NCBI RefSeq assembly: GCF_026151205.1
Contig: NC_087072.1
Span: forward strand, 26,067,799 to 26,131,798
DNA length: 64,000 bases
Source of the DNA: Bolinopsis microptera
Taxonomy: Eukaryota > Ctenophora > Tentaculata > Lobata > Bolinopsidae
Reading direction: 5' to 3'
Under the pieces are notes generated by a model. That model saw only the letters and a program-made list of their open reading frames with translations. It had not been told where the DNA came from and did no database searches. Positions 5,698-59,009 of this stretch are shown in pieces (position 1 is the first letter of the stretch; every line of letters starts with the position of its first letter). The position numbers and the translations under genes are program-made.

Positions 5698-8600
5698 ATG
5701 GTAGAGGCAGAGGTTGTCGACACAGCAACCGAGACGAATGGCTATGCTCACTCCGAGCCGTCCCCTGATAAACTAACTACAGTTGGTGAAGAGAAGAAAG
5801 TGAGTTAAACTAAGTTTTATATTTAGATTCACCTGAGAGAAGAAAGTGAGTTAAACTAAGTGGTAGTTTTATAAACCACTTTTAATTTATTGACCTATTA
5901 TACCTAGTGGTAGTTTTATAGACCACATTTAATTTATTAACTTATCATACTTATACAAAGCAGAATTCTACCTGACTACACTGAAGATATTGAAGTGCTC
6001 GCCTCTGACTTCAACAATTTCTTCTCAGAAAAGGTTGAAAAGATTCGAGATAACATACCAGCCTCCCCAATACCCGATTGTTCTGACACTAATGCAACAC
6101 CTCTCTTTGAATTTGAGCCAACCTGTATCTCTGAACTTGAAGATATAATCAAAGAAAGTGGAATTAACTGTTCACCTAATGATGTCTTACCACAAGATCT
6201 TGTCAAAGATAATATCACTTCTCTGTTGCATGTATGGGTTGATCTAGTTAACCAATCGCTGTCATCAGGAAGTATGGATGGTGTGAAACTAGCTGATGTA
6301 ATTCCGCTAATAAAAGATGATTCTCAGGATCCGAATATATTGAAAAACTACAGGCCAGTCTCAAACCTTACATTCCTGGGAAAACTAATTGAAAGAGTAG
6401 TTTTAAGAAGACTCAACGAGCACCTTAGTCGGAATAACCTTAATTGTCAGGAACAGTTTGCTTACAAAAAACACCATAGCACTGAAACACTCTTGATTAA
6501 AATAGTGAACGATGTCTTAATAGCAGCAGATGAAAAAACTGCTACTGTGGTGATGCTCTTGGACCTGAGTGCTGCCTTTGATACTGTGGACCATACTTTG
6601 TTACTCCGTATCTTGAAGCAAGAAATAGGAATCAGAGGAACTGCTCTTAGCTGGTTCACCAGCTTCCTTAAAGGACGTTGTCAGCGGACTAGACTCGGCA
6701 AATCTGTCTCTGAAACAATAACTATCCGATTTGGAGTACCTCAGGGCTCTGTTTTAGGCCCGGTACTCTTTAACATCTATATCAGATCGTTGTACAGATG
6801 TGTTAAAGAATCTGGTTTCTCCATTATTGGTTATGCAGATGATCATCAAATCATGAAATCTTTCAAACCCTCTGATCAGGTCAAAACCTTAACCAATCAG
6901 CTGAGAAACTGCTTCTTGACGATAAAGAATTGGATGTCACAGTACTACCTGCAACTGAATGATTCTAAAACACAACTCATAGTCTTTGGACCTAGTAAAG
7001 TGCTCAGTGAGATAGAACTTCATGGCGTTGATATAGCTCCTAACACTTTGGTAATGTTTGTGCCTACTGTTAAGAACCTTGGATTAGTAATGGACAATCA
7101 GCTGGTATTTGATAAACAGATCGTAAGTCTCAAGAAGAAATGTTTTCATACGTTACGTAATATCAGAAAAATCAGATTTCTACTGAGTCCCAAACAGATT
7201 AAGATCATCGTTAACAGTCTAGTAGTGTCATGTCTAGATTACTGTAACGGTCTGTACTTTGGTATCGGCGAGAAGCTGCTACATCAGCTCCAGTTACTTC
7301 AGAATGCTGCTGCAAAAGCTGTCACTGGTAAATATAAACATGACCATCTTGATGATGACCTGATAAAGCTTCACTGGTTAGATGTAAAGAAAAGGATTGT
7401 CTTCAAAATCTTATTACTATCTCACAAGTCACTGTTAGGATTGGCACCAATTTATCTGCAGGACATGTTCAAGTATGCTCATCATGGTCACTCATTGAAG
7501 CTTATTGTTCCTTCTTGTAATTCAAAGTTTGGTGAGCGTAGCTTCTCTGTAGTGGCTCCAAAGATCTACAATCGTCTGCCTGTTACCATCACCTCTGCTC
7601 AATCTCTGGAATGTTTTAAAGCTTTTCTAAAAACTTACCTTTTCAAAATGTCTCCAGATGAACTTGAAAAACTTTATCGATAACTATTGTGGTCATATTT
7701 GGATTTCGATATTTGCATAATATATTTAAGTACCATTTTCGGGCTTTAGTATTGACGATATATTTTCAAGCATATGTTATTTTTTAGCTCAGTATTCATG
7801 ATATTTTCTGGGATGACTAGTTCAAACACTGCTGAGTATAAGATTTATCTTAAAAGCGGTGTTATTAAATTTCAATTTATTATTATTATTACTTAGTATT
7901 TATTTTTGGTGACTGTATCACCCAGTTTTAACATTTGATAATTGTACAGTTTATTGACGACACATTGACTGAATGTTATTTTATATTCTAATTTATATTC
8001 TAGATATTTTATTTATTTTTCAACAGACGACAACTTCCTGTTTTTTCTTCTATATTAGTTACTCATATCTCTTGTACAGACTGTTTTACAAGGACATTGA
8101 CAGATGATACTCACATTAGGCATTCATTATTGCATCTAAATTATTTCACTTGCATTAGGTTTAGAAATTTATTCTCTGGTTAACAGATTTCAAATGTTTA
8201 ATCAATTTGTAGTATGACAGTAAGGCATATAAGAAGTTATTTAATTTTGCTTGAGTTATTATATTGACTATTGAGGTTTAATGATGATATGGAATTTGAC
8301 TTCTATATAAATTTACACTATGTGGTTGGGGCATTTTGCATAGTAAATATGGTTACTACTCCTATATATCATATTATTTGATTGGTATTCGATTTCTTAT
8401 TATTTCTTAGGAATATGATTATTATATCTCAATTTGGCTTTAGGTAGGGTGCCCCGCTAAAAGAACTGGATTCTTCCAGGAAGCATCCCGTGCACAGACC
8501 TTGGTCTACATATATATTAAATTATTAACCATTCATTCTGTATGTGCACGAAAATTTATTTCAATCAAGTTGTATATTTCGATTCACCTGAGACGTTTTT

Positions 8601-11600
8601 TAACTCAATTATGACATCCTTATTAATAATGACATTAAACGGTACACTACTAATATTCCCTGTCCCAGGTATTACTGAGACAGAACCACTACAGCAACAA
8701 CACAGGACTGACAAACGGCTCTATCAACAATAACAACTCTAGTAACAATGCAGTCTCCAACGATAACAACTCCAGACAGTCCCAACAGAGGAACACAGCA
8801 ATATTCTCTAATCCCATCAAACAGGCACAACAGGTGGGGTTTACAGTGTTGTGGGATTGTTGGTACTACTACAGTAGTCACATTGCAACTGCTTAGTGCT
8901 TTTCGGCTGCACTGCAGTTATACCGAGATTTAAATTATATTCGCTTGAGCCATTGAGGCTTACCACTGTCAACACTGAACAATACTACTACATAATATTC
9001 ACTATTATAGATATACCACAGGGCAGTTAAGCTGGCGTCATACTTTATTTCAAAAGTTGAGCAATCTTACTATATATAAAGCGAGACGATATATATATAT
9101 ATATATCTGTGCCATTTTACTGACACCACGGCATCGACTTTAACGCAACTTTCTGCAAAAATCGTAAAAGATATACAACTGAAACTTTTTTGGCTGGGTC
9201 AAATGCTTTAATATCCTCCAAATCAGCATGAAAAAATAAAAAATTGGCCGAGGAATAATGATTTTAGAGCCGAAAATTTGGACCCCCAAGTGGTGTCAAA
9301 AACGCCAATTAAATAGGTAATAATTATTTCAGTATCTTGAGTCTTGACACCGTTTAGGGTTATATTTCACGGGTTCCTGCTAGTATATATAATATATCTA
9401 ACTATATATAAAGCGAGACGATATATATGGTTCCGTGCCATTTTACTGACACCACGGCATCAACTTTAACGGGACTTTCCTCAAAAACCGTAGAAGATAT
9501 ACAACTGAAACTTTTTTGACTGGGTCAAATGCTTTAATGGCCTTCAAGTCAGTATAAAAGAATAAAAAATTTACCAAGGAATAAGAATTTTAGTGCCCAA
9601 AATTTGGACCCCCAAGTGGTGTCAAAAACGCGAATTAAATAGGTAATAATTATTTTAGTCTTTTGAGTCTTCCTGCTAGTGTATATAATATACAGAAAAA
9701 TGTTACCTTTCGTATTATATATAAAGGTAACACTTTCCTGTACCTTGCTTTCGTTTTATTTGTATTGCTTACACACTTCACGCTATAATGTATCTCTTGT
9801 TCCACGCACTGTGCACAGTATATATGTATAAATAGTAATATTATGTTTTAATATCCAGCCTGTTCTCCTCAGATGCCCTACAAAAGATCGCCCAGTCCAG
9901 CCCAGCAGCAGTGGCAGAGTAACCGAGGTAACTACTGGTCCGGTCAGCAGAAAATGTCTTACCACTCCCCCTACATGCAGAACAATAATTATAATGTGAG
10001 TATAAACTCCTCCTACATGCAGAACAATAATTATAATGTGAGTATAAACTCCTCCTACATGCAGAACAATAATTATAATGTGAGTATAAACTCCTCCTAC
10101 ATGCAGAACAATAATTATAATGTGAGTATAAACTCCTCCTACATGCAGAACAATAATTATAATGTGAGTATAAACTCCTCCTACATGCAGAACAATAATT
10201 ATAATGTGAGTATAAACTCCTCCTACATGCAGAACAATAATTATAATGTGAGTATAAACTCCTCCTACATGCAGAACAATAATTATAATGTGAGTATAAA
10301 CTCCTCCTACATGCAGAACAATAATTATAATGTGAGTATAAACTCCTCCTACATGCAGAACAATAATTATAATGTGAGTATAAACTCCTCCTACATGCAG
10401 AACAATAATTATAATGTGAGTATAAACTCCTCCTACATGCAGAACAATAATTATAATGTGAGTATAAACTCCTCCTACATGCAGAACAATAATTATAATG
10501 TGAGTATAAACTCCTCCTACATGCAGAACAATAATTATAATGTGAGTATAAACTCCTCCTACATGCAGAACAATAATTATAATGTGAGTATAAACTCCTC
10601 CTACATGCAGAACAATAATTATAATGTGAGTATAAACTCCTCCTACATGCAGAACAATAATTATAATGTGAGTATAAACTCCTCCTACATGCAGAACAAT
10701 AATTATAATGTGAGTATAAACTCCTCCTACATGCAGAACAATAATTATAATGTGAGTATAAACTCCTCCTACATGCAGAACAATAATTATAATGTGAGTA
10801 TAAACTCCTCCTACATGCAGAACAATAATTATAATGTGAGTATAAACTCCTCCTACATGCAGAACAATAATTATAATGTGAGTATAAACTCCTCCTACAT
10901 GCAGAACAATAATTATAATGTGAGTATAAACTCCTCCTACATGCAGAACAATAATTATAATGTGAGTATAAACTCCTCCTACATGCAGAACAATAATTAT
11001 AATGTGAGTATAAACTCCTCCTACATGCAGAACAATAATTATAATGTGAGTATAAACTCCTCCTACATGCAGAACAATAATTATAATGTGAGTATAAACT
11101 CCTCCTACATGCAGAACAATAATTATAATGTGAGTATAAACTCCCCCTACATGCAGAACAATAATTATAATGTGAGTATAAACTCCTCCTACATGCAGAA
11201 CAAGTTGGAAAGTGCAGCACGCTTGCATAGTTAGGAAATCTTTTAACTGCAGAATTTTGTACAAACCTTGTTAACAGATACACCGTATTGTACTTTGTAG
11301 GCTCACTTAGCGTGAAGTTACACAGATGTACACTGTACAGAGATGCATGGTTTTTCTCTTGTTCATAAATTTACCTACAAACAACATCTTGTAAGTGGTG
11401 ATATATTTGTTGATAAAAACTGGATCTGAGCCAACTACTAACAATAACTTACAACTACTACTACTACTACTAACAAACTGTAATTAACCCCCTCGATCTC
11501 TAAATTTTATCTGTCAAAATACGGAAAGTAAATGCCTAATCTTCTTACTATATATAAAGCGAGATGATATATATGGATTATGGATCCGTACCATTTTACT

Positions 11601-14600
11601 GATACCACGGCATCAACTTTAACGCGACTTTAGATATACAACTGAAACTTTTTTGACTGGGCCAAATGCTTTAATAGCCTCCAAATCAGCACGAAAAAAT
11701 AAAAAATAGGCCAAGAAATAGGAGTTTTAGAGCCCAAAATTTGGACCCCCAAGTGGTGTAAAAAACGCGAATTAAATAGGTAATAATTATTTTAGTCTCT
11801 TGAGTCTTGACACCATTTTAGGGTTATACGGGTTCCTGCCAGTTACCTTAATTAGTATGTACCTAATTACCCTTAAGGTCACTCACCAGTGTGTACTTAC
11901 CAGTGTGTACTTACCAGTGTGTACTTACCAGTGTGTACTTACCAGTGTGTACTTACCAGTGTGTACTCACCAGTGTGTACTTACCAGTGTGTACTTAGCA
12001 GTGTGTACTTACCAGTGTGTACTTACCAGTGTGTACTTACCAGTGTGTACTTACCAGTGTGTACTTACCAGTGTGTACTCACCAGTGTGTACTTACCAGT
12101 GTGTACTTACCAGTGTGTACTTACCAGTGTGTACTTACCAGTGTGTACTTACCAGTGTGTACTTACCAGTGTGTACTTACCAGTGTGTACTCACCAGTGT
12201 GTACTTACCAGTGTGTACTTAGCAGTGTGTCCTTACCAGTGTGTACTTACCAGTGTGTACTTACCAGTGTGTACTTACCAGTGTGTACTTACCAGTGTGT
12301 ACTTACCCGTGTGTACTTACCTGTGTGTACTTACCAGTGTGTCCTTACCAGTGTGTCCTTACCAGTGTGTACTTACCAGTGTGTACTTACCAGTGTGTAC
12401 TTACCCGTGTGTACTTACCAGTGTGTACTTACCAGTGTGTACTTACCAGTGTGTACTTACCAGTGTGTACTTACCAGTGTGTACTTACCAGTGTGTACTT
12501 ACCAGTATGTCCTTACCAGTGTGTACTTACCCGTGTGTACTTACCCGTGTGTACTTACCCGTGTGTACTTACCAGTGTGTACTTACCAGTGTGTACTTAC
12601 CAGTGTGTACCTACCAGTGTGTAGTACTTAAGTTAAGTGAATCAATCTTTCAATGTGAGAAAAAAGCGCATAAATTGTATCCTTCTGTTTCAACATTTAA
12701 CCGAAAAATTCTAATATGGCGATGATCCCCCAACCCCTTATAAATAATCAGCCCCCCATCCATGTGATTGTAGTTAGTATTAAATCGCTGATTGACGCAC
12801 TTTCATACTGAGATCTTGTCTTAATTCGATCATAACTCTAACTGTGTCGCATCTTACGTGTAACGTATGAGTACTATACCCTGCTACTAGAGTACTATGA
12901 GATGCTATAATACTCCTAGACATAACGTTAGATCACACCCTCCAAATGTAGCTAATACTATATAATATTACGCATTAAGTCATAGCAATTAGCGACCTAA
13001 GTCATCCACAACATTAGAACATATTTCTAAATGAGAAGCAACAACACACCCTGCACTCTATTGTATAGGCTGGTTTTGGCTGGTTGCCAGAGTGTAATGA
13101 TGTCCCTCTAAACGGTACCCTACTTAGATAAGCAGTTGTTATAGTAGTATATATTGTAGTATACAATATAGTAGTATACATAGCGCAGCTAGCAGAATGT
13201 TCATGTGGCGGCGTGTTAAGGAGCTTCTAAAGGTTTTGAGTGTACTCGTATGTTCTATTGTTTAGCCTAGTGACCATTCTAAAGTAAATATTAAACCAAC
13301 CTGTTCCACAAGGAGTTTTGGATGCAGAATTATAACACACTTATTGCAACTAGTTTAATTAGTTATAACACACTTATTGCAACTAGTTTAATTAATTAAC
13401 TAATGAGTTTAATTAATTACAGAACGGAGGAGGTTACAGGAATGATAACAACCAGTCCGAGCAGCTGAGCCGTACTAACCTTTATATACGCGGACTGCCC
13501 CACCATACCACTGATGATGAGCTGGCTAACATGTGTAAAAGGTTAGTATTCTAATATTTCCTGCTTCTGTTTTCGTTTTCAGAGCTAAAAATAAGTTTGT
13601 AAAACTGTTATGAAATTCTTTCTGACATCTTGATTTCAGGTTTGGAAAGATCACCTCGACAAAGGCCATCACTGACAAGCAGAGCAACAAATGCAAGGGT
13701 GTGTTTTACTTTGACACGTTCAACATTTACTTCTAATATTTGTCAAGCTAAAGTGCGAGAAGATAAGGCCTGTTTAAAACTGCGTGTAGACAAAGAAACG
13801 CGTTAAACCTTCTGAACATTCCCCTTATTACATCTAACACGTGTAATCATTATGTTTCTATCTTATATACTGCTATATATATCTCTTATACTGCCTTATC
13901 TTCATAAAATACCAGTGTTTTTACCAGACACTTCCTCAGGATATGGGTTTGTTGACTTTGAAAGCCCTGAGGCGGCACAGAAAGCTTGCCAACATCTTAC
14001 ATTGCAAGGAACGCAAGCATCGTTTGCTAAGGTTAGTAGCAAGGTATGTCATCTTTATCTTCTTCACTTGGCTGTGCTGAAATTTCGTGCTTTCTCTTGC
14101 ATGTTCCTTTGACATCCTCCACTCGGTGGAGTAACTTGATTACTCTTTTGTGATTGGTATTTCTTTAAAAAGCCCTTTTTTCGCCTAAGTGTCATGATTT
14201 GACTTGGTTTAAGTCATTAAAACGAAAGTGACCGTTGTCAATGTTACCGCTATGTAATTTGAATGAAAACGCAAAAAACCGCCGAAAAATTTCTCAATAA
14301 GATGTGTGCAGACAGTGTCATTGTGAGCATTTTGTGCAGTTTATTTGAGCGCGCGCGAACGCGGGAAAGGCAGTTGTACGACTGTTCTCTCAACTGCTGG
14401 CCGGGACCGCCTGCTTACTGCTTACCAGGGGTACCTATTGCACACACAATCTATTTTATAGATCTAGCGATTGATTCCCAATCGACATTTTTAAAAGTAG
14501 TTTTCCGCAGAATTCCCATATATTTTACTATTAACAAACTTCACTGCGCTATATTGAAGGATGTGACTAACTACCTTATTTCAGATGTCAATCAACGATC

Positions 14601-16339
14601 AGATAAGAAAACAACAGCACGACCCTTCAAAGATAAAGCAACACAACGACAACATAGACGTGACAAACCTGTATATCAGCAATCTACCTCGATCCTTCAC
14701 GGAGGAAGTATGCCTGAAGTTTTCATTTCTTTGTCTGTTGTCACCTAATTTTAATATATTAAGATATATCTCATCTTCTGATGTAGGTCAATATTTTCAT
14801 CCATGTATATTCAATACTTATTTTTCAGCAACTCAACAGTTTGGTGATGCCGTTCGGTGAAATAGTTTCATCTAGGATATTGAAAGACCCAGAGGGGAAC
14901 AGTAAAGGTGTTGGATTTGCCAGGTCACTGAACACCAATTAGTTAGAAAAGAAAGTTTACCAGGAAAACACCATGTACTTCAAAAACTAGTTCCTTTAAT
15001 CTTAGATATAGTTGTAGGAAAAACTTAAAATCTGTGTGCGCTATTAAGTTGCAATTTCAATAATGAGTTATTCTAAAGTTGTTAGCGAGAATTTTATTTT
15101 GAATGATATATGCCTCCTCTGTTAGGATTCACATCTGTTCAAATTGTGCGCGCTTTTCGTTCCCAGTAATACCTATTCAAATAAATCTTATATCCGTCCA
15201 TCATAGTCAGCCAATAGCAACTCTGTGTTCAGGTTGGAAAGTAAAGAATTATGCGAAAAGGCAATCAAAGCCCTGAACGGCAAACCAGTAACCCAAGGAG
15301 GAGAGCCTTTGATAGTCAAATTTGCTGAAGCTCCGAATCCAAACAAGAAACGGCCTCTAGTTTACTTCGCTCCTGCATGGGCAGCAGCTGGAGCGGGAAT
15401 GGAAGATAACGGACAACTTCCAGCAATGAGCTTCGTGCAGCCAATGTATTCAGATGTGTCGTTACAACAGAACGGAGCTTCCGCTATTCCTACACCAGGC
15501 CCTAGACCCCTACTTATACACCCTTGTGAGCTTTGCAATATTCATCTTCACTTGATATAAAAATAATATCAATTCTACCAATCTATTTTATTTGTTAAGT
15601 GCTACCTACCGGCAAATTGAAAATGGTTTAAAAGTTGTCCATAGTTACAAATTTGATCTTTGTGTGCACCACCATAGAGGAAATAAAACAAATGTTAAAT
15701 CTTGAACCTCTTTACTCCTTTTCAGCAATGCAGATGGTACCTCTACCAATTCAGTACAACAACATTCCAAACGGACAGTGGATGTCCCCGCAATTTGTTC
15801 CCCTGACTACATTCCCCCCTCAACTGTCCCCGGTTGATCATCACGCCCTGGCATCTCAGATGGGACAGTTGCACCTCGGCGGAGGCTATATAGGCACTCC
15901 AAACTCCTACACTCCATACAGCACACCTCAGGCTGTAAGCACTAACTCTATTGCCAGTGAGGTTAGGGACCTTTTACTGCGGCCGTTATAATTATACCCT
16001 CTCACTACATGATCAACTATTTTATTGTTTTCATTTTTATCGAACACCATATTGAAATCATCTCGAAGTTAATTAACTTAACAGTATATTTTTACAGAAC
16101 CACACTACTAACGATGCCCATCATCCCAACTACACTATTTATGACACCAGGTGGGTCTCCTCTCATTTTCTCGCTTGCTGACTGTAGCTCATATATAACT
16201 TGCTTATTGAAAATATGATACCATCTCTCCGCATACTTTTTTATTTGACTATCGTTTATTTCAGCCTACAATAGAACAATATGATGCCATCTCTCCACAT
16301 ACTTTTTATTTGACTATCGTTTATTTCAGCCTACAATAG
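5698..16339 (+). CDS. RBMS: RBMS-type single-stranded nucleic-acid-binding protein, 12 exons
   Basis: Exons: 5698-5799, 8669-8833, 9873-9995, 13423-13541, 13640-13698, 13940-14043, 14585-14707, 14829-14923, 15233-15525, 15726-15934, 16098-16150, and 16265-16274 or the duplicate 16330-16339. They total 1455 nt: 484 residues plus TAG, with every GT-AG junction in phase. The N-terminal ~145 residues are Asn/Gln/Ser-rich. RRM1 (about 149-220) has RNP2 LYIRGL and RNP1 KGYGFVDF; RRM2 (about 251-333) has RNP2 LYISNL and an RNP1-like KGVGFAR. The spacing and the TNLYIRGLP / TNKCKG-like blocks match human RBMS1/2/3 (MSSP/SCR2), which bind AT-rich DNA and A/U-rich RNA. The C-terminus is Pro/Gln/Tyr-rich. 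Exon 6 has an alternative donor 12 nt upstream (14032). Exon 1 and exon 2 calls rest on splice signals and phase, so they are less certain than the RRM exons. Confidence 0.88.
5791..5861 (+). repeat. Tandem duplication of the RBMS exon 1 splice donor
   Basis: A 25-bp segment spanning the exon 1 end and donor (gagaagaaa|gtgagtt...) at 5791-5815 recurs unchanged at 5837-5861, 46 bp downstream. The second GT (5846) would bring in stop codons, so only the first is useful for coding. Confidence 0.85.
5960..7900 (+). mobile_element. 5'-truncated L2/CR1-like LINE with open reverse transcriptase
   Basis: The frame is open to the stop at 7683, giving about 562 residues from 5995. RT motifs occur in order: [13 protein letters not shown] (about residue 117), [13 protein letters not shown] (about 189), [11 protein letters not shown] (about 246) and YADD (about 280). 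The C-terminal [19 protein letters not shown] block is typical of L2/CR1-type elements. The endonuclease domain is missing. The 3' end has a short TTATTATTATT tail (7875-7895). It lies in RBMS intron 1 in the sense orientation. The unbroken frame suggests a relatively recent insertion. Confidence 0.9.
7905..8660 (+). other. RBMS intron 1, no gene seen
   Basis: AT-rich intronic sequence after the LINE, ending in the polypyrimidine tract and tgtcccag acceptor of RBMS exon 2. Confidence 0.6.
9066..9395. repeat. Dispersed ~300-bp interspersed repeat, copy 1
   Basis: Starts near tatataaagcgagacgata and ends near ttcctgctagtatata. Shared blocks are ccattttactgacaccacgg, caactgaaacttttt, tttggacccccaagtggtgt and taggtaataattattt. 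No coding capacity is seen. Other copies lie at 9400-9690, 11548-11845 and 53120-53420. The family is unknown and no terminal repeats are obvious. Confidence 0.85.
9400..9690. repeat. Dispersed ~300-bp interspersed repeat, copy 2
   Basis: Tandem neighbour of the copy at 9066, with the same block order, lacking part of the 3' segment. The flank at 9700-9740 contains a gttacctt...aaggtaac inverted repeat. Confidence 0.85.
9962..11206 (+). repeat. 42-bp array, each unit carrying a GTGAGT splice donor
   Basis: The unit encodes the end of RBMS exon 3 plus the start of its intron: tacatgcagaacaataa, then ttataat|gtgagtata, then aactcctcc. The GT of the donor falls at 9996 and recurs every 42 bp to 11172, giving 29 donors. 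Units are nearly identical; the ccc for tcc variants in the first unit and near 11143 are the only ones noticed. 42 is a multiple of 3, so the sense frame stays open through the array, as do two antisense frames. A 30th partial unit ends at acatgcagaacaag. Confidence 0.97.
11548..11845. repeat. Dispersed ~300-bp interspersed repeat, copy 3
   Basis: Same family as 9066 and 9400, in the same orientation. It directly precedes the 14-bp array. Confidence 0.85.
11878..12625. repeat. 14-bp tandem array (cagtgtgtacttac), about 52 copies
   Basis: A near-perfect 14-bp period with scattered single-base variants (ctcacc, cttagc, ccgtgt). All long open frames here are by-products of the repeat. The reverse complement of each unit reads CTG|GTAAGTAC, an ideal 5' splice-site sequence on the strand opposite to RBMS. 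It lies in RBMS intron 3. Confidence 0.95.
12640..13415 (+). other. RBMS intron 3, no gene seen
   Basis: AT-rich intron sequence. A short duplication (ttataacacacttattgcaa) lies at 13330-13390, just before the exon 4 acceptor. Confidence 0.6.
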
Positions 16340-16340
16340 A
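16212..16340 (+). repeat. 65-bp tandem duplication of the last RBMS acceptor and stop codon
   Basis: The segment ccatctctcc...atttgactatcgtttatttcag|cctacaatag appears twice, with a 65-bp offset. Either acceptor (exon start 16265 or 16330) yields the same end, Ser-Leu-Gln-stop. Confidence 0.85.
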
Positions 16341-16344
16341 ACAA

Positions 16345-18535
16345 AAGCGCAGTAGAAGGCTGAAAAAGGCACTAAAGAAATGCATGCACCTGCACAACAG
16401 GGAGTCGTCGCGAATTATTTGCAGAAACTTTAATTCATCAACCGAACTCTTGAAATTCTCGAACGATCTGTAAAATTTGTCAATGATTTCGACGAAAAAT
16501 ACCAAAAAAAATGTGATAATGGTTTGAAAAGAACCGACGAAGCTTTTGATTTTCTCGATGTATTCGAATCGTTCCAAAACATCAAAATTTGGAAGTGATA
16601 TGCCAAACAGTTTGTTTTGTCAAAAATCTGGCGACGAAACAAACGAGTAGCGGCCCCAGTGGTAGGCTCTGAGAGGGACTGTCTTCAGAAGATCAGATTG
16701 TATCTGATAGGTTGTGTACTGTGAATCTTTCTATTGTGACTAAAGGATGCGCAAACCCATTTACACCATTTAGTTCCCCGTAAGTTGTTTTCCGATTTAA
16801 TTTTTGCAATGATATTTGTCAATTTCTAGGTCTTTTTAAGATGTTTTAATAATGTTTGGGTGTATTTAAATATTGGGTTTCGACTTGGGCATATAAATCT
16901 CCTTTTCTATTCTTGATTAGTCAGCATAGCTCATATATCTTCTGTCACAAGACATTTTGTTGCTTAATTTTTGTACTGGAACTAAAGATTTGAAAAAACT
17001 GCCTGATCAGATGATACGGTTGATTGCCGACACACCATTTAACGTGTAAAAATGGTTATTTGCCGACACACCATTTAACAAATGGTTATTTGAAAATGAT
17101 TTGTGAAAATCTTTTTCTTGTTTTTAAAATATTGGTGCTCATGTTAGGTTTATTTTTTCACAGAATTTTGAGTCCGGAGCACATAGGTACCCCTGAATTT
17201 AAAAATCACTGTGGGATTCCAAACTTTGGACATGTTGATGTAGTCCTACGTATCATGAAGCTCCTTTTGTACTGTACAGTTGGGCTTAAAATCTAGCGTA
17301 TTATTTGGGATCGTTGAGAGATTCAGGGGTGCCTTTATTTTGATTGAGAATGAAAATTGATTCAAACATTCGAAGAATTCAGTTCCTTCTAAACGGCTAA
17401 CAGGAACAGGTTTTGTTGTTTTTATTTTGTATTTCTGCGAGCGAAATGTTTTTACGTGTCCAGTAGCCATTTTTATTTGATTGTTTTCTTTAATAGAAAT
17501 TTATTTGAAAAAATTCCTGTCCTCGAAGGGAAATTTTCTTACGGCTCCCAAAACCTTCCCAGTATGAGGTGTCTCCCTTCTTCCCTGAAGCTCATTTTTA
17601 ATTTAATTTTTTAAGTGAGTATACTTTTAGCAGGTGACTGATGTTTTTATAAGTCAAGTTTTTATGCTAGTGCTAGACAGAACTCCAGGACTGCAGATTG
17701 TGTTGTGTGGCATTATATCGAGAGCTTGAGTCGCACTGATTTTGTCTAGATGATCATATCTAGATATGATCCTTATCCGACTCGAATGATTTTAATCACA
17801 TTCCAACTTGCTGCTCTGCCATTTAACTATTACATCTTGTTTATTCAGTTGAGTCACAGAGAATGGCAGTGCTTTAAGTTTAAATGTTATTTAGTTTTGG
17901 AACACCCTGTAATTTGTATGTAAGGTGTGCCAGTGTGTTATATCACCAGATGGAGAGGTGTCTCTAGCAGCAGCTGTGTAATTTGGATCCAGAAACTTTG
18001 TTTACAATAAATTGGTAGGATTTACCTTATCTTCAGATTATGAGATGGTTTTTTGAATTTTTAGATGTGCAGAAATGCAGTGGTTAGGTGTATTATTTGG
18101 AATAATTTGACGAAAAGTGCCGGCAAATATGAAATATGTCACGAAATTGAGTATTCCCTGACTTGATAGCTCTGTACATAAATTTAAAATTGAATTCTTT
18201 GAAATCAGTGTTTCTATTTGTATTCGTGTGGTGTAGTGCAGCCGGTGTAGTGGTCTGGTGAGCCACATTCCAGATCTTCATCAGCCGATACGATTTCGTG
18301 CAGGCTGGATCTTAAAATGTTCAAGACTATAATTGTTCGACGGCGCAGTTTTAATCTCCACAGAAAGCACAGTGCACACCCCAAATATTCACTTGGAATA
18401 CTCTAGAAAGAGAATATGTATAATAAAACTAAATACAGCAAACACGAGAAATACATCAAGTGGCAGAGTTGAGAGTATTCACTACTTTTTTCGAACATCT
18501 TTATTTCTTTTTCTGAGAAGTTTAATTTCGACGTT
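16345..18535. other. RBMS 3' UTR and intergenic sequence, no gene seen
   Basis: AT-rich sequence with only short uncorrelated frames. A duplicated gccgacacaccatttaac occurs at 17026-17080. The 3' end of the RBMS transcript cannot be placed; aataaa at about 18006 is one candidate poly(A) signal. Confidence 0.5.
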
Positions 18536-18544
18536 TAGTTGTCT

Positions 18545-18835
18545 GTATAAGCAAGAAGGACGTTTCAACGATTCCCGTTCAGACGAGCAGGGGAACCACT
18601 CCTATCTGTCCAGTTCCGCTAATTTCTTCTTGATGTTTCGAACAGTTGTCTCGCCGATTCCAAAGTGTAGGGCAACTGAAGAGGAGGATTTGCTGCTCTT
18701 CGACATTTGGATCTCTTCTGTCCGATGGTTAGAACTTACAGATGTCGATAGCTATACTACATACTAGTGATAATACAGATTTCGATACGATTTGCAATGT
18801 ACTGCAAAGAAAGCAAGAATTTGAGTCAATTTCTA
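18545..18835 (-). pseudogene. Fragment of a pogo/Tigger-type (CENP-B-like) transposase
   Basis: On the minus strand near 18720-18625 an MSKSSKSSSSVALHFGIG stretch followed by ETTVRNIKKK resembles the helix-turn-helix of Tigger/jerky/CENP-B DNA-binding domains (SxxALHFGIGExTVRxIKK). A stop follows soon after, and no DDE catalytic part is seen. The adjoining segment 18740-18835 recurs inverted at about 62490-62570, showing a shared repeat family. Confidence 0.55.
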
Positions 18836-18909
18836 TTACATATATTACTTACTAATATATAATATACTATTAATGAATAAGTTACTGAGTAAGACTATCA
18901 GGAATACCC

Positions 18910-19288
18910 TTGTAGGTTTACAACCTACCAGGACGCGCGCCGAGTTGGACTCGTCGACGGTCCAATATATGGAACAGATATTTTACGAGTATCACCCGTT
19001 AAGTGATCAGTGATTGAAACAGTTTTTTAGAGTGATTTAGCTTAACGGGTGATACTCTTAAAATATTTGTTCCAATTATCCAGGACCATCTTGTATCACG
19101 TGGTGACCCCCACTGTTGCTTCACTATAGTAGAGTTTCGACGATACAAGGGGAGCCGCGCACTCGTGCGCGGCGGGTCATACAACGTATGACATGACAAG
19201 GACCATCGACAAGACCAACTCGGCGCGCGTCCTGGTACCATCGACAAGTCCAACTCGGCGCGCGTCCTGGTAGGTTGTAAACCTACAA
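18910..19288. mobile_element. 379-bp foldback element with long terminal inverted repeats
   Basis: Both ends begin TTGTAGGTTTACAACCTACC reading inward and stay complementary through the gacgcgcgccgagttgg block. An inner arm pair (gagtatcacccgttaag / cttaacgggtgatactc) makes almost the whole element a palindrome. The right arm holds a partial duplication of the gcgcgcgtcctgg block. It contains a nested ~109-bp element (19091-19199). No coding capacity, and no clear target-site duplication. Confidence 0.85.
19091..19199 (+). mobile_element. ~100-bp structured mini-element, copy A (nested)
   Basis: Begins TTGTATCACG and ends GACAA. It is flanked by the perfect 8-bp direct repeat GGACCATC (19083-19090 and 19200-19207). 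It contains the conserved GC-rich hairpin arms GCCGCGCAC/GTGCGCGGC and the TGACCC...GGGTCA pairing. It is inserted in the foldback element at 18910-19288. Confidence 0.85.
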
Positions 19289-19556
19289 CCGAAATACCGC
19301 TTTTAAAGCACCACCCTTAGCCTGATATCAGCTGAGCACAAACGCATAAATTGTTTCAGGATTTTCACAACAGATCAGCTTGTACATACTATTACCATTG
19401 AATATTGCTTATTAGTATGTAAAAGTTTTGATACATAATATATAATATAATACATGTTAAAAAGTTTAGTGTCTAGTATTTGTATTTGTGTCTAGTATTT
19501 GTATCTGTTATTATTAAGTTCGATTGAAATATCTTGTCATACATCATACGTTGCAT

Positions 19557-19775
19557 ATTTGTAGGTTTACAACCTACCAGGACGCGCGCCGAGTTGGACT
19601 CGTCGACGGTCCTGTTCCAATATATGGAACAAATGTTTTACGAGTATCACCCGTTAAGTTGCATATGCAATATGACCCGCCGCGCACGAGTGCATTACTG
19701 GGCCGCGCTCAGCCTGTCATTCCGTTGTAGCGCGATGCACTACTGGGTCGCGCCGCGCATCAAATAATTCTTCTC
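19557..19775. mobile_element. Partial copy of the foldback element plus an inverted fragment of the mini-element
   Basis: The left arm of the 18910 family (TTGTAGGTTTACAACCTACC... to tcacccgttaag) is followed by tatgacccgccgcgcac, which is the mini-element end in reverse. A ttactgggccgcgctcagcc block follows, which reappears inverted at about 36700. Confidence 0.75.
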
Positions 19776-19799
19776 GCAACGCTAAATTATAATGACATC

Positions 19800-20005
19800 A
19801 ATGTGTTTAAAGAAATCGTGGGCATCACTCAGTAAACTGCGCGTCTTTAGCGCGTGTCTTGTTGTTATGCATCAATCCTTCGGTAGATCGGCGAGATGCA
19901 CCACTGTGCCTCACCGAGCTGCGAAGGATTGACATCGTGAATCAAGTCATTCCGCCGAATCTCTATTCAATTATCATGTTTATGAACATGATAGCCTGAG
20001 GTCTT
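19800..20005. repeat. Hairpin-rich repeat
   Basis: Inverted arms caatccttcg/cgaaggattg surround an inner gcgag/ctcacc pair. A downstream segment (tcattccgccgaatctctat... tcatgtttatgaacatga) matches, inverted, the 82-bp insertion at 36641. Non-coding. Confidence 0.5.
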
Positions 20006-20147
20006 TATGTAAACGAGTGCATCGCAGTAATATATACTTACTTTTAAACTTCATGACTTGAGATCTTTTGCAGCATATAATCAAAATTAATTTGTGCACT
20101 TATGTCTTATACATACATCAACATACATACATCAACATACAAATGAC

Positions 20148-20250
20148 TTGTATCACGTGGTGACCCCCACGGTCGCTTCACTATAGCGTCTTCGACGCTA
20201 CAGGGGGAGCCGCGCACTTCGTGCGCGGCGGGTCATACAACGTATGACAA
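20148..20250 (+). mobile_element. ~100-bp structured mini-element, copy B
   Basis: Flanked by the perfect 8-bp direct repeat CAAATGAC (20140-20147 and 20251-20258). Starts TTGTATCACG and ends GTATGACAA. Hairpins visible: TCAC(gtg)GTGA, TAGCGTC(ttc)GACGCTA, GCCGCGCAC(ttc)GTGCGCGGC and TCATAC(aac)GTATGA; the C5/G5 runs could pair around the second. Confidence 0.9.
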
Positions 20251-20259
20251 CAAATGACA

Positions 20260-21250
20260 ACGTACTTGGAACAGTGAAATATTTTTGAAAGAGAATAACA
20301 AACTCAAAAACGCATAGTTCTTTGTAAAAAGTCAAATTACCTTCAAGTCAATTTAGTGCAGAATCAAGCGAAATGTTCAATGTTGAACTATTTTATAAAT
20401 ATCAAATTTGATGTGCTGTCTATTATATTGAGATATAGTTTTTTTTCATTGTTAATAGATTGACCCGGCCCGAAGCTATTTGGAAGCTTCGTGCCTATTT
20501 TTCGAGAAGAAAGCAGCGCGCGCTATATTTCGAAGAAATTTTGACGAGTATTATATATTATCCGTCACGATATAGTGCGCGCCATAATCAATAATATAAT
20601 ATGAAATACTATAAAACCTTGTGTTGTATGGTAAGATCGAGCGCTCAGTTTCAGTACATATAAAGTTCTCTGACACAAATATAAGAAATAAGCAGTTCTG
20701 CCGCAATGTTATCGTCATCCTTGACATGTTATCATTGTTTTACCCTAACCCAACCCATAACTTGAAGATCTTGTGTTTTACGTGTTTTCGCTAATCAATC
20801 AAAACACGTTTCGGCAGAGCTGCTGTGGGGCTGTCAGTATTTCCTCGAAGTAATTTTCTTGGAGCACTGTTTGCCGCAGATCATAACCGATGTCTCCTGT
20901 TCTTTGCAAGTGTTTCTTGTTATCACTTGTAATGGGTCGACATCGAACACCTTACGAAGTTATTCTTTCATTTTTTGATGCATGGCATTCGATATAATTG
21001 GGTATATCTTAGGATGCAGCTTAGATGTGTTCTTCATATTTCTGCTGCGAAATAAATGTACTACATAAAGTTTGTGTTGTAATAATTTATCATTTGGTAG
21101 TCTAGATGCACGGAAACGATCAGGGAACAGGCTTCAGAATTTTGGTTATATTGTAAAATGATGTGCATAATTTATCTTAGAAATCAACAAGTGAGATTGA
21201 AAATAATAAAAATGTTAGGCTCTCACTGAACATGATCTAACAGGGATGGT
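20260..21250. other. Intergenic region upstream of CLPX
   Basis: No gene is seen. A GC-rich palindromic block at 20461-20590 (gacgagtattatatattatccgtc, with gcgcgc stretches) resembles 50400-50520, suggesting another dispersed element. The CLPX promoter must lie in the right part, but no specific site is recognisable. Confidence 0.5.
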
Positions 21251-21258
21251 AGTGAGTA

Positions 21259-24200
21259 ATGTTGAGTCAAGTATCCATACAATCAGTAAGAGTGTTAAGA
21301 TGTCTGGGCACGTTTAAAGTGCAATGTTGTAAGCAACATTACTCCTGCCTGCAACCTCCTCACCTTTCTACTACTACTCCTAAACACCTTTCTCGCCAGG
21401 TTAGTGTAAATCACTTATTATCTATTGTCGGCTATAAGTCTAAATGCCGGGACAAGAAATTAAATGGACATATTCATAGCATTACATAGTTTTACTGTCT
21501 AAAAGCTAGAGGGTGGCACATTAAATAACTCTACATATTTTGTGATGATATTAACCTCCTGCACCCTCAGTTGTCCAGTACTTCTGATCCAGATGACCCT
21601 ATCTCCCGCTGCCCCAAGTGCGGAGGCCCACTAAACAATCTGAAGGGAGTTTCCACCACCCCACGATTTGTGAAATGTCAGCAATGTGAATATTTCTACG
21701 TTTGTGACATTTTCAACAATGACATGAGAGTCGAATCAAGGTCAGATATCCTTGAAATTACTGATTCATACCAGTTGTACCAGTAATAAATTATATTAAT
21801 TAAATATACTAATAAAAATGGAAGTGCATCATTTGCTTTCTCTGCAATGAAGAAGAAGTATTATAACTTGATACATTTCAGCCACCTTGACCCAGCGTAC
21901 GACACCAAAGAAGACAGACTTCCTACCCCTAAAGAGATATTCTCGTATCTGAACGAGTATGTTATAGGACAGAGCCACCCGAAGAAAGTGCTATCAGTTG
22001 GTATCTACAATCATTACAAGAGGATACAGATAAACTTATCTGAGAAGAAATCATCTAGAGTGTCGGGTATCTCCAAGATGGATAAAACTAACGTCCTGCT
22101 TCTCGGTCCTACAGGTTTTAAAGAATACTTGTGTTGAAACAGGAAACATTATAAATAATCTTTATTTCATTTCAAAACAGAGAGAATCCCGTTATATTAT
22201 ATACGCAATTACCGTTAATTACCGGTGATAACTCACAGTTAACATTGCGACAGGGACGGGTAAGACCTTGTTAGCTCAGTCACTGGCCCATTGTCTAAAA
22301 GTTCCTATGACTATTTGTGACTGCACTTCTCTAACTCAAGCTGGGTATGTGGGGGAGGATGTGGAGTCTATTATCGCTAAACTTCTTATTGCTGCCGACT
22401 TTAATGTGGACAAGTGTCAGCGGGGCATCGTCTTTCTCGATGAGGTAAAATAAACACTTGCTTTGGGGGTCGTCAGCTATTTATATCATCTGTATGTTTA
22501 AACATTACTTTTATTATGTTTAATTCTTATACTATCTGTAATGTTAATAATTTCTGCAATGTTTATATTATCTGTAATGTTCATATATTTTCTGCAATGT
22601 TTATATTATCTGTTATGTTCATATATTTTTTGTAATGTTTATATTATCTGCAATGTTTATATTATCTGTAATGTTCATATGTTTCTGTGATGTTTATATT
22701 ATCTGTAATGTTTATATTATCTGTAATTTTCATATATTTTCTGTAATGTTTATATTATCTGTAATGTTTATATTATCTGTAATGTTTATATTATCTGCAA
22801 TGTTTATATTATCTGTTATGTTCATATATTATCTGTTATGTTCATATATTTTCTGCAATGTTAATATTATCTGTTATGTTCATATATTATCTGTTATGTT
22901 CATATATTTTCTGTAATGTTTATATTATCTGCAATGTTTATATTATCTGTAATGTTCATATGTTTTCTGTAATTTTTATATATTTTCTGTAATGTTTATA
23001 TTATCTCCAATGACCCCCCCTCTCTGAACAAGCTCTTTATTATTGTATTATATCAGGTTGATAAGATCTCGATGCGGTCTAAAGATGTACATGTGCGGGA
23101 CGTATCAGGTGAGGGAGTACAGCAGGCTCTCCTCAAACTTCTAGAAGGAACTTTAGTTACTATTCCTGAACGACTTATTCCCTCTCGAAAACTCAGATCG
23201 GAGCCCATTCAGATTGATACGACCAATATTCTTTTCATTGCTTCCGGAGCTTTTGCGGGGATCGAGAAGATTGTCAGGTATGTTTGGGAAATTGTCCGGT
23301 ATGCTTGGGAAGATTTTCCGGTATGTTCGGGAAGATTGTCCGGTATGTTTGGGAAAATTGTCCGGTATGTTTGGGAAGATTGTCCGGTATGTTTGGGAAG
23401 ATTGTCCTGTATGTTTGGGAAGATTGTCCGGTATGTTTGGGGAGATTGTCCGGTATGTTTGGGAAGATTGTCCGGTATGTTTGGGGAGATTGTCCGGTAT
23501 GTTTGGGAAGATTGTCCGGTATGTTTGGGAAGATTGTCCGGTATGTTTGGGGAGATTGTCCGGTATGTTTGGGAAGATTGTCCGGTATGTTTGGGGAGAT
23601 TGTCCGGTATGTTTGCGAAGATTGTCCGGTATGTTTGGGGAGATTGTCCGGTATGTTTGGGAAGATTTTCCGGTATGTTTGGGGAGATTGTCCGGTATGT
23701 TTGGGAAGATTGTCCGGTATGTTTGGGGAGATTGTCCGGTATGTTTGGGGAGATTGTCAGGTATGTCATGTTTGGGAAGATTGTCCTGTATGTTTAGGAA
23801 GATTGTCCGGTATGTTTGAAATAATCTCATTAGACCGTATGTCTCAATCCAAGCCGAGGGATTAAACGTTCTCACTTCAGAGGGCTAAGCCACCTAAATA
23901 TATCTAAAAATGACTCATGAGCGGATAAATAAAAAGATATTATGAGCATGAATACTGGTTTTTGTAAAAAATATCTCTCTTTTGCAGAAACAGAAAAGTT
24001 AAGAAAACGGTCGGGTTTGGTAGCCCTATTTCTAAAGATGCAGCTATTCTTGATCAGACCAAAAACAAAGAAAACTTCGAGCAACAACTTAAAATTAACG
24101 ATGACTTTTTAAAGGTGACACCATAGTTCTGACCATTCAAATTATAAGATTAAATTACACTTTTTGTATGGTGAGCTCAATAAAATAATAATGATATTAA

Positions 24201-27200
24201 TATTAATCATTGAAGTGAATTTTATATTATGTACCATTAAAAAGCCCTTCCTGTTGACTATAATGGAATTGGTGTACAGGAGATTGACGCAGAAGATCTG
24301 GTGAACTACGGGATTATACCTGAGTTTGTGGGCAGAATGCCCCTCTGTGTATCTCTCATGTCATTAGGTAATCTAACTATTTGAATCAAATGATGGAGTA
24401 CAGTTCGCTGTTTATTTAGGGCCCCTCCCTAGTTGAGGACCCCTCCTCCCTTGTTGAGTGCCCCCCTCTCTTGTTGAGGGGCCCTCCACCCTAGTTGAGG
24501 GGCCCTCCCCCCGGCCCCTAGTCGAGGCCCCCTTCCCCCTAGTTGTGCCCAGAAGCAAAGGTTTCTAGTTGAGGGCCCCTCCTCCCTTCACTGGTTGTAC
24601 CCCCTCCCCCCTAGCCGAGAGCTCCTCCTCCCTTGTTGAGGGCCCCCTTCCCCCTAGTTAAGGGCCCTCTCCCCCGAGTTTAAAGTGTAATTCCCTCAGA
24701 TCGCGAGGCTCTGGTAACGATCCTAACCCAGCCCAAGAACTCAATAATATCTCAATACAAGTACATGTTCACTTTGGATGACAGCGCACTCGTTTTCACT
24801 GATGATGCTCTGGACGCCATTGCTGAACTGGCCATCAAGAAACGAACTGGTAAATCTTTAAAATAGTTTTCTTTTTATTTGATTTGTCAATATCATGTTT
24901 GTTTTTTTGGAAGTTATCTGTGAAGGAAACGCGAGTTAAATAAAATCTAAAGTTACATTATAATATGTGAATTAAAAGTAAGCTCCTATCAGCAGAATTA
25001 CACGACAATCTGCAGAATAACGCTCTGTAAACTGCAGTATCCAGCGTTAGCCCAGTCTGCAGAGTCCAATAACGCTCTGTAAACTGCAGTATCCAGCGTT
25101 AGCCCAGTCTGCAGAGTCCAATAACGCTCTGTAAACTGCAGTATCCAGCGTTAGCCCAGTCTGCAGAGTCCAATAACGCTCTGTAAACTGCAGTATCCAG
25201 CGTTAGCCCAGTCTGCAGAGTCCAATAACGCTCTGTAAACTGCAGTATCCAGCGTTAGCCCAGTCTGCAGAGTCCAATAACGCTCTGTAAACTGCAGTAT
25301 CCAGCGTTAGCCCAGTCTGCAGAGTCCAATAACGCTCTGTAAACTGCAGTATCCAGCGTTAGCCCAGTCTGCAGAGTCCAATAACGCTCTGTAAACTGCA
25401 GTATCCAGCGTTATCCCAGTCTGCAGAGTCCAATAACGCTCTGTAAACTGCACAGTATCCAGCGTTAGCCCAGTCTGTATTGGTCCTCATCTGAACAAGA
25501 CCTACAATTCTCTTCCATATATTTGTTGTTGTGATTGTTACAGTGGCCTTGTCTGGTCCAGTAGGAACAGTTAGTGTTGAGGTCTTGACATGGAGTAGGG
25601 GACTCAGTTGTTGGTTCCTCATCTTTATCACAGTCCATCTTCATCTCCTGAGTAAACTCAGCGGCTCTACATACCTTACAGCGGCTCTAGATACCTTACA
25701 GTGGCTCTAGATACCTTACAGTGGCTCTAGATACCTTACAGCGGCTCTACATACCTTACAGTGGCTCTAGATACCTTACAGCGGCTCTAGATACCTTACA
25801 GCGGCTCTACATACCTTACAGTGGCTCTAGATACCTTACAGTGGCTCTAGATACCTTACAGCGGCTCTAGATACCTTACAGCGGCTCTACATACCTTACA
25901 GTGGCTCTAGATACCTTACAGTGGCTCTAGATACCTTACAGCGGCTCTAGATACCTTACAGCGGCTCTACATACCTTACAGTGGCTCTAGATACCTTACA
26001 GTGGCTCTAGATACCTTACAGTGGCTCTAGATACCTTACAGCGGCTCTAGATACCTTACAGTGGCTCTAGATACCTTACAGTGGCTCTAGATACCTTACA
26101 GTGGCTCTAGATACCTTACAGTGGCTCTAGATACCTTACAGCGGCTCTAGATACCTTACAGCGGCTCTAGATACCTTACAGTGGTCGAGGATGATGTTTT
26201 GACATGGGAAGACTTCTTTGATAAGAGCAAATACTTGAGGAGCTTATCCCTAGTGTTAATGTGGTTGTGAATACTATTTGGAGGGTTTGATCTGTACCCC
26301 TTCTGCAAAGTACAGCAGTTGACATTGCATAAGTACAGTGTGCCCTGTCTCCTCCTCACAGTGTGCCCTGTCTCCTCCTCACAGTGTGCCCTGTCTCCTC
26401 CTCACATTGTGCCCTGTCTCCTCCTCACAGTGTGCCCTGTCTCCTCCTCACAGTGTGCCCTGTCTCCTCCTCACAGTGTGCCCTGTCTCCTCCTCACAGT
26501 GTGCCCTGTCTCCTCCTCACAGTGTGCCCTGTCTCCTCCTCACAGTGTGCCTTGTCTCCTCCTCACAGTGTGCCCTGTCTCCTCCTCACAGTGTGCCCTG
26601 TCTCCTCCTCACAGTGTGCCCTGTCTCCTCCTCACAGTGTGCCCTGTCTCCTCCTCACAGTGTGCCCTGTCTCCTCCTCACAGTGTGCCCTGTCTCCTCC
26701 TCACAGTGTGCCCTGTCTCCTCCTCACAGTGTGCCCTGTCTCCTCCTCACAGTGTGCCCTGTCTCCTCCTCACAGTGTGCCCTGTCTCCTCCTCACAGTG
26801 TGCCCTGTCTCCTCCTCACAGTGTGCCCTGTCTCCTCCTCACAGTGTGCCCTGTCTCCTCCTCACAGTGTGCCCTGTCTCCTCCTCACAGTGTGCCCTGT
26901 CTCCTCCTCACAGTGTGCCCTGTCTCCTCCTCACATTGTGCCCTGTCTCCTCCTCACAGTGTGCCCTGTCTCCTCCTCGTACCAGTATCTGAGGCACCCT
27001 GATATCGCGTACTTGGCTCCCAGCAGGTGAACACCGTGCGCAAACTCGTGGAGGAAGATATTCTCTGTCGCGTACTGGTCCTGCGCGTAGCACAGGATAT
27101 TCTCCTCGGCACCGAGATAGGCCACGCTTCTGTAGCTCCTGTAGTACTATCTCTGCCTGTTATAGAAGTAACCCAATTTGACGAGAAATACTAAAATACA

Positions 27201-42740: not shown

Positions 42741-42799
42741 CTTGAAAATGGGGGAAAAACAAAAAAAAAAAAACTTTGAAAAAAAATTTTTTTTTTGGG

Positions 42800-42832
<33 letters not shown>

Positions 42833-43050
42833 TGAAAAGGGGGTTTAAAATTAGGGGGAAAAAAAAACAAAAAACTTTTTTGGGGGAAAAAAAAAAAACA
42901 AAAAAAAGTTGGGGCACAAAATTTTTTGGGGGGAAAAAAAAATTTAAAAAAAACCCTTTAAGGGAAAAAAACAAAAAAATTAAAAACTTTGAAACAAAAA
43001 AAAAAAAAAAAAAAAAAACTTAAAATTTAAAAAAAAATTAAAAAGGGGGG

Positions 43051-43084
<34 letters not shown>

Positions 43085-43640
43085 AAAAATTAAAGGAAAA
43101 AAAAAATTTTAAATTGGGGTAAAAAAAAAAAAATAATAAAAAAAAAACGTTAGGGGGGAAAAAAAAAAAAAACCCCCGAAAAAATTTAAAAAAAAAATTT
43201 TAAAAAAAATAAAACTTGGGAAAAAAACTTTAAAAAAAACGTTTAAAAAAAAACCTTTTAAAAAAAGGGTTTTTAAATTAAAAAAAAAGGGGAAAAAAAA
43301 AAACTTTAAAAAAAAAACGTTAAAGGGGGAAAAAAAACTTTGAAAAAAAAAAAAATTTGGGAAAAAAAAAAAAAAAAAAAAAAATTTTTAAAAAAAAAAA
43401 CTTTTTTAAAAAAAAACCCTTAAAACTTTTTGGGAAAAAAAATTGGAAAAATTTTTTGGGGGAAAAAAAGGGTTAAAAAAAACAAACTTTTGAAAAAATT
43501 TTAAAAAAAGGGGGGGGAAAAAAAAAAAAACGTTAGGGGGAAAAAAAAAAAAAAAAAAAAAAAATTTTATTGGGGAAATACAAAAAAAAAAAAACTAGGG
43601 GAAAAAAAAATTTTTTTAAAAACTTTTAAAAAAGGGAAAA

Positions 43641-43696
<56 letters not shown>

Positions 43697-44140
43697 GGGA
43701 AAAATTTTAAAAAATTAAAAAAAACAGGGGTTAAAAAAATTTTTAAAAAAAAAAAAAAATTTTGGGGGGGGAAAAAAAAAAAAAACTTTAAAAAATTAAA
43801 AAAAAAAAAAAAAAAAATTAGGGGGGAAAAAAAAACGTTTTTGGGAAATTTAAAAAATTTTTGGAAAAAAAAAAAAAAAGTTAGGGGGAAAAAAAAACCC
43901 GAAGGGGGAAATTTTTTTGGAAAAACTTGGGGAAAGGGGAAAAAAAAAAAATTTTTTCTTGGGGAAAAAAATTGGGAAAATTTAAAGGGGGGGGGGAAAA
44001 AAAAAAGGAAAAAATCTTTTGGGGAAAAAACGGAAAAGTTTTTAAACAAAAAAACCCCCCCCCCAAAAAAAACCCCCCCAATTTAAAAAAAAAAAAAAAC
44101 TTTTTAAAAAAAAAAAAAAAAACTTTTTTTTCCCCCACCT
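42741..44140. other. Homopolymer-inflated low-quality continuation of the satellite
   Basis: Sequence consists almost only of A-, G- and T-runs, but remnants of the satellite unit keep appearing (aacgttaggggg near 43146, 43530 and 43870; aactttgaaa; acttgaaaa). This looks like corrupted consensus rather than biology. The Lys- and Phe-rich frames on it are artefacts. Confidence 0.8.

Positions 44141-58952: not shown

Positions 58953-59009
<57 letters not shown>

What the first reader, a model, noticed from the sequence alone, without database searches (positions are those of the whole stretch)
5698..27000. Several independent tandem arrays are seeded exactly on 5' splice sites
Four arrays of unrelated sequence and period repeat the last bases of an exon plus the first bases of the intron, or begin at the donor: RBMS exon 3 (42 bp), CLPX exon 5 (22 bp), peptidase HEFAH exon (23 bp, minus strand) and peptidase exon ending in HCK (20 bp, minus strand). 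RBMS exon 1 has a two-copy version, and the last RBMS acceptor is also duplicated. A fifth array (14 bp, 11.9-12.6 kb) carries a perfect CTG|GTAAGT on the opposite strand. Random slippage would not be expected to choose exon ends repeatedly, in both orientations. This points to a splice-site-linked amplification process, or to selection for extra donors, that I do not know described.
Basis: partly seen in the sequence, partly recalled or inferred. Interest (0 to 1): 0.9.

Follow-up and report, generated by a model that had tools for sequence, protein, structure and literature searches.

The report
Tandem repeats spanning splice donor sites
In this animal genome, which is rich in short tandem repeats, some repeats begin on the boundary between an exon and its intron, so that one gene carries nearly thirty copies of a single splice signal; the same oddity is known from amphioxus as 'mirages', and I found no proof that splicing itself causes it.

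Summary
The core observation holds. A 42-bp array (29.5 copies) spans the donor of RBMS exon 3; a 22-bp array (25 copies) spans a CLPX donor; RBMS exon 1 has a two-copy version; the last RBMS acceptor is duplicated. The minus-strand 20-bp case is plausible. The 23-bp ('HEFAH') donor is unproven, in a gene whose frame looks broken. The 14-bp array touches no exon. An inverted copy 200 kb away carries these arrays with other copy numbers. Three further donor arrays, one verified by homology across the junction, lie in 230 kb outside the window.

The phenomenon is described: amphioxus 'mirages'. Outside the window, arrays start at coding donors somewhat more often than chance (3 against 0.60, P 0.021); acceptors and two-copy duplications show no excess. 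Genome-wide, tandem GGTAAGT is common (3,840 matches), but the non-donor neighbour GGTAACT is commoner (11,294), so the donor word is not favoured as such. Best reading: mirage-type minisatellites, tolerated because the first copy keeps exon and donor intact. A donor-directed process is unproven. The genome is probably a ctenophore (Bolinopsis microptera), inferred from assembly statistics only.

The parts
9964..11203 (+). 42-bp array, 29.5 copies, over the donor of RBMS exon 3 (9995|9996); 31-32 exon bases in the first unit; 29 intact donors; frame open through the array
9873..9995 (+). RBMS exon 3 (phase 0 at its end)
23266..23818 (+). 22-bp array, 25 copies, over a CLPX donor (23277|23278); 12 exon bases in the first unit
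23057..23277 (+). CLPX exon whose donor is in the array
5790..5858 (+). RBMS exon 1 end and donor (5799|5800) with a second copy of 'AGAGAAGAAA|GTGAGTTAAAC...', the second copy broken by a retroelement
16212..16344 (+). 65-bp x 2 duplication over the last RBMS acceptor (exon starts at 16330); one copy only in the other gene copy
25659..26184 (-). 20-bp array, 26.3 copies, filling nearly the whole intron after HCK| (last exon base 26175); plausible donor array in a minus-strand gene nested in the last CLPX intron
26335..26978 (-). 23-bp array, 28 copies, beside the HEFAH coding stretch; donor not established
11881..12623 (-). 14-bp array, 53.1 copies, CTGGTAAGT on the minus strand, inside RBMS intron 3; no exon at its edge
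22512..23006 (+). AT-rich array in the preceding CLPX intron, starting at least 68 bp after the donor (ordinary intronic array, contrast case)

Best explanation
These are mirage-type minisatellites: tandem duplications that happen to include an exon end and intron start, followed by growth of the array into the intron. The first copy keeps the exon, its frame and a donor no weaker than the others, so such a duplication is nearly invisible to selection; later copies lie in the intron and turn over fast by unequal exchange or slippage. The genome makes short arrays everywhere, so some lie on donors. Shown: the geometry, the two main junctions, copy-number differences between two gene copies, high array density. 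Inferred: that the first donor is the one used (protein homology, no RNA), near-neutrality, and the mutational mechanism.
For: Verified gene models with the donor in the first unit. Copy numbers in window v inverted copy: 42 bp 29.5 v 22.4, 22 bp 25 v 12.9, 14 bp 53.1 v 13.1, 23 bp 28 v 2; at the 20-bp donor the other copy has mainly a 15-bp unit x 51. Two acceptor duplications present in one copy only. First donor at least as strong as the mean of later copies in 5 of 5 arrays. 20 strict arrays in 160 kb of 16 loci placed at round coordinates. Two-copy duplications not biased to donors outside the window (1 v 1.38). Non-donor words as common or commoner in arrays. Amphioxus mirages with regular splicing.
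Against: Outside the window, arrays of 2.8 or more copies start at coding donors more often than random positions (3 v 0.60, P 0.021; looser threshold 6 v 1.73, P 0.007; an earlier run with 200 draws gave 3 v 0.49, P 0.005), which plain neutral placement does not predict. Numbers are small, the codon model came from 2,652 codons partly in the tested loci, and two of the three donors are predictions.
Confidence: 0.68

Rival explanations
1. A donor-linked process (transcription- or splicing-coupled breakage, R-loops, or the like) makes duplications at donors expand more than others.
For: Excess of multi-copy arrays at coding donors outside the window, none at acceptors. L029: array begins exactly at intron base +1 of a homology-verified junction.
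Against: No excess among 59 two-copy duplications outside the window; non-donor neighbour word commoner in arrays than the donor word; an array can also end on an acceptor (L046).
Confidence: 0.14
2. Selection favours extra donors, for example to recruit U1 or guard against premature polyadenylation.
For: All 29 RBMS copies keep an intact donor; the three array-bearing RBMS/CLPX donors score among the six best of 18.
Against: Later copies average weaker than the first in four of five arrays; no donor-specific excess of the word genome-wide; the same array has 28 copies in one gene copy and 2 in the other.
Confidence: 0.06
3. The arrays are coding or alternatively spliced: inner donors of the RBMS array add 14-residue repeats.
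For: 42 bp is a multiple of 3 and the frame is open through all units in both gene copies; L041 (9 bp) also stays open.
Against: Units of 22, 23, 20 and 32 bp are not multiples of 3; unit differences in the other RBMS copy change the amino acid (N/K, S/P, N/T, M/T in the translation); no RNA available.
Confidence: 0.06
4. Chance alone in a repeat-rich genome, with a finding chosen after the fact.
For: Consensus units of 20 arrays in other loci carry no more donor words than shuffles (2 v 2.45); shifted controls in the window match the array starts.
Against: Three independent cases outside the window.
Confidence: 0.06

Closest known systems
Amphioxus 'mirages' (Adh3, TnC, globin and PGBD5 genes; PMC3087553 section 16 read, PMC3902484 passages read; the 2002 Adh paper itself not held)
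   Same: Tandem repeats over exon-intron boundaries, units of 10-72 bp in Adh3, copy number differing between haplotypes, both 5' and 3' boundaries affected, units carrying decoy splice signals
   Different: Another, probably very distant animal; up to 29-40 copies per array here; here no RNA evidence on splicing
Intron gain by tandem duplication of exon segments with AG|GT (Rogers model, as cited in PMC3087553)
   Same: Duplicated splice signals in tandem
   Different: In RBMS and CLPX the acceptor lies outside the array, so the array did not make the intron
Ordinary intronic minisatellites/VNTRs
   Same: Unit length, homogeneity, copy-number change
   Different: First unit includes exon end and donor

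Membership tests
Amphioxus-type mirages | Tandem repeat unit spans an exon-intron boundary | tested here: met
   RBMS exon 3 and CLPX; RBMS exon 1
Amphioxus-type mirages | Units of about 10-160 bp (Adh3 10-72, globins 150-160) | tested here: met
   42, 22, 46, 65 bp
Amphioxus-type mirages | Copy number differs between haplotypes | tested here: inconclusive
   Copy number differs between window and inverted copy, but whether these are alleles or paralogues is open
Amphioxus-type mirages | Both 5' and 3' boundaries can be duplicated | tested here: met
   Acceptor duplications in RBMS (window) and CLPX (other copy); acceptor-ending array L046
Amphioxus-type mirages | Homogenised units | tested here: met
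   27 of 29 full RBMS units identical
Amphioxus-type mirages | Regular splicing not disturbed | not testable with these tools
   No RNA; CLPX homology fits use of the first donor
Amphioxus-type mirages | Somatic instability | not testable with these tools
   No reads
Amphioxus-type mirages | Reported from cephalochordates | tested here: inconclusive
   Taxon inferred as ctenophore from 264.65 Mb and 13 large contigs only
Intron gain by AG|GT tandem duplication | The duplication supplies both donor and acceptor of the intron | tested here: not met
   RBMS array ends 11203, acceptor 13423; CLPX array ends 23818, acceptor 23988. The minus-strand 20-bp intron is not decided
Introner (dispersed intron-making) elements | Similar sequence dispersed over many introns | tested here: not met
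   RBMS array DNA found only in the window and in its inverted copy; the other units were not searched

The most novel reading that the evidence does not exclude
Duplications arise anywhere, but those that include a used 5' splice site go on to expand more often than others, through something acting at donors of transcribed genes. This would fit an excess of multi-copy arrays at donors together with no excess among two-copy duplications or at acceptors.
Probability: 0.12. Interest if true: 0.75.

Novelty: new member of a known kind. Interest (0 to 1): 0.42.

Why it matters
Such arrays are natural competition tests for splice-site choice: RBMS exon 3 is followed by 28 further identical donors, 42 bp apart, in an open frame. 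If the taxon is a ctenophore, mirage-type arrays are not peculiar to amphioxus but may come with any minisatellite-rich genome, and published annotations could test whether donors really attract arrays.

Tried and rejected
Donor word in array units: window 3 of 10 against 0.60, but other loci 2 of 20 against 2.45. A k-mer count over 53 array units (the inverted copy left out) put GTAAGT in 2 arrays and GGTAAGT in 1, unremarkable beside GTAACT (6) or GGTAAC (5). Genome-wide GGTAAGT triples looked striking against the built-in backward control (3,840 v 26) until other controls were run: GATGAGT 502, TGAGTAG 1,278, GGTAACT 11,294. A Poisson estimate rests on guessed donor numbers and is not used. 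A spliced-leader motif reported for other ctenophores (AATTTGAG) followed by GT was not found in 334 kb. The RBMS protein search was not possible. GGTGAGT, GATAAGT, CAGGTAAGT patterns and the PF10613 search (for the taxon) did not complete.

The donor scoring table was typed from recall (human-like weights), and the gene names SYNCRIP/hnRNP R, LMF1 and RBMS come from PDB or Pfam hits; RBM24/38 for L032 is recalled only.

Full report
What is there. The window lies on contig C1 (26.2 Mb) of a 264.65-Mb genome in 232 contigs, about 75 kb from the contig's end. RBMS reads as one open frame over 11 exons; a short 12th exon from 16330 is my reading of the sequence. Its RRM part matches PDB RBMS1 best. 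CLPX reads as one open frame over 8 exons and matches mitochondrial ClpX-like chains at E about 1e-132. The donor of RBMS exon 3 lies in the first unit of the 42-bp array and the donor of a CLPX exon in the first unit of the 22-bp array. Of 14 tandem-repeat rows in the two gene spans, 2 cover a sense donor and 1 an acceptor; the exon-1 duplication is found by TRF only in the other gene copy.

Minus-strand gene. Between 27.7 and 25.5 kb a gene on the minus strand sits in the last CLPX intron. Only its ShK domain is recognised; Pfam, NCBIfam and PDB gave no credible match to the rest, and frames break. The 20-bp array after HCK| fills almost its whole intron and is a plausible case. The 23-bp array is beside coding-like sequence but its donor is unproven.

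Two gene copies. An inverted copy about 200 kb away on C1 matches in pieces, the long ones about 90-98% identical; 18 of 19 exons given were found at 94-100%, the last CLPX exon lying beyond the fetched stretch. Array copy numbers differ: 29.5 v 22.4 (42 bp), 25 v 12.9 (22 bp), 53.1 v 13.1 (14 bp), 28 v 2 (23 bp), 8.8 v 124.1 (52 bp); at the 20-bp donor the other copy has mostly a 15-bp unit. The RBMS last-acceptor duplication exists in the window only; a duplication over a CLPX acceptor exists in the other copy only. Turnover is therefore recent and ongoing.

Outside the window. I took 16 loci of 10 kb at round coordinates on C1-C5 and 17 loci around RRM exons with short open frames, chosen by me from 146 RRM matches without knowing their arrays. 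Three arrays there start at or on a donor: L029 (32 bp, begins at intron base +1 after an exon that aligns across the junction to Syncrip and hnRNP R), L041 (9 bp x 40 after an RRM exon; donor predicted) and L017 (30-bp units, mostly CTG|GTAAGT, after an activin-receptor-like exon at 20.3 bits, just under the cut-off of 20.9; donor predicted). L032 and L019 start roughly 20-25 bp after a donor without covering it.

Tests. Score = donor weight plus coding score upstream of the array start. Outside the window and its copy, 44 arrays, 88 orientations: at least 10 in 3 against 0.60 (P 0.021), at least 8 in 3 against 0.84 (P 0.044), at least 6 in 6 against 1.73 (P 0.007); acceptors at least 10 in 1 against 1.63; positions shifted 150, 300, 600 bp reach 10 in 0 of 81, 1 of 80, 0 of 73. 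In the window and copy, 24 arrays: 5 at threshold 8 against 0.48, but shifted positions give 4, 5 and 4 of 47, so that part says nothing; and the test misses the verified RBMS array. Two-copy duplications outside the window (59): donors 1 against 1.38, acceptors 1 against 3.22. So there is a weak excess at donors for grown arrays and none for seeds.

Genome-wide words. Three copies with spacers of 3-33 bases: GGTAAGT 3,840 matches, its backward control 26; GATGAGT 502, backward 1,278; GGTAACT 11,294, backward 40. By clusters among the listed rows: GGTAAGT 6 in the first 3.1 Mb of C1, GGTAACT 18 in the first 2.4 Mb, GATGAGT 7 over all of C1. A word that is a poor donor is commoner than the donor, so the abundance belongs to a general GGTAAC/GTTACC-like taste of this genome's minisatellites. 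I looked at the flank of 3 of the 6 GGTAAGT clusters: one array ends on the acceptor of an LMF1-like exon on the other strand (99.8 bits), one lies upstream of a probable exon on the other strand, one shows no exon.

What it is. Tandem repeats over exon-intron boundaries are known as mirages in amphioxus (section 16 of PMC3087553 read; passages of PMC3902484). They differ in length between haplotypes, affect both boundaries, and do not disturb regular splicing in the cases studied. The present arrays meet the testable features. Six searches of the held library, judged by their listings, showed no report of this in ctenophores; that is no proof of absence. The Hormiphora paper (passages) gives 13% of that ctenophore genome as tandem repeats and many nested intronic genes, which fits.

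Taxon. Size 264.65 Mb and large contigs C1-C13 (10 lengths seen, all over 16 Mb; RRM hits on 12 of the 13 and on C160) fit Bolinopsis microptera, 265 Mb and 13 chromosomes (passages). Its published scaffold number, 346, does not match 232. No named sequence was compared, so this is an inference.

Mechanism. A duplication over a donor leaves the first copy intact, so exon, frame and donor survive and the rest becomes intron. In five arrays the first donor is at least as strong as the mean of later ones (counting later GT sites that match at least 6 of 9 bases). This explains why such arrays are tolerated. It does not explain the weak excess at donors, which needs the genome-wide intersection that I could not run.

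Noticed in passing
5859-8566: A retroelement-like insertion (reverse-transcriptase-like coding) in RBMS intron 1, absent from the inverted copy and breaking the second exon-1 repeat; its 47-bp x 2 start also occurs at L017:2340-2436.
   Followed up: partly
C1:25.853-25.877 Mb (L009-L012): Inverted copy of the RBMS-CLPX region about 200 kb away near the contig end: a misplaced haplotype or a real inverted duplication.
   Followed up: partly
9873-11250: The reading frame of RBMS exon 3 stays open through all 29 units and ends in [13 protein letters not shown] in both gene copies.
   Followed up: partly
11881-12623; L046; L048; L017:8101-8987: Three of four GGTAAGT-bearing arrays with gene context read ACTTACC in the host gene's sense strand, like the 5' end of U1 snRNA (recalled), that is, complementary to donors.
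   Followed up: no
42760-44130: A-rich stretch with scattered short T, G and C runs next to a 245-copy 19-bp array; looks like a poorly sequenced or wrongly assembled stretch.
   Followed up: no
55303-55355 and 58953-59007: Pure G runs of 53 and 55 bases.
   Followed up: no
25500-27700, minus strand: Peptidase-like (HEFAH) and ShK-domain gene nested in the last CLPX intron, with frame breaks; perhaps a pseudogene.
   Followed up: partly
genome-wide: Tandem GGTAACT triples are very common (11,294) against 40 for the word read backwards: a strong, unexplained sequence preference of this genome's minisatellites.
   Followed up: no
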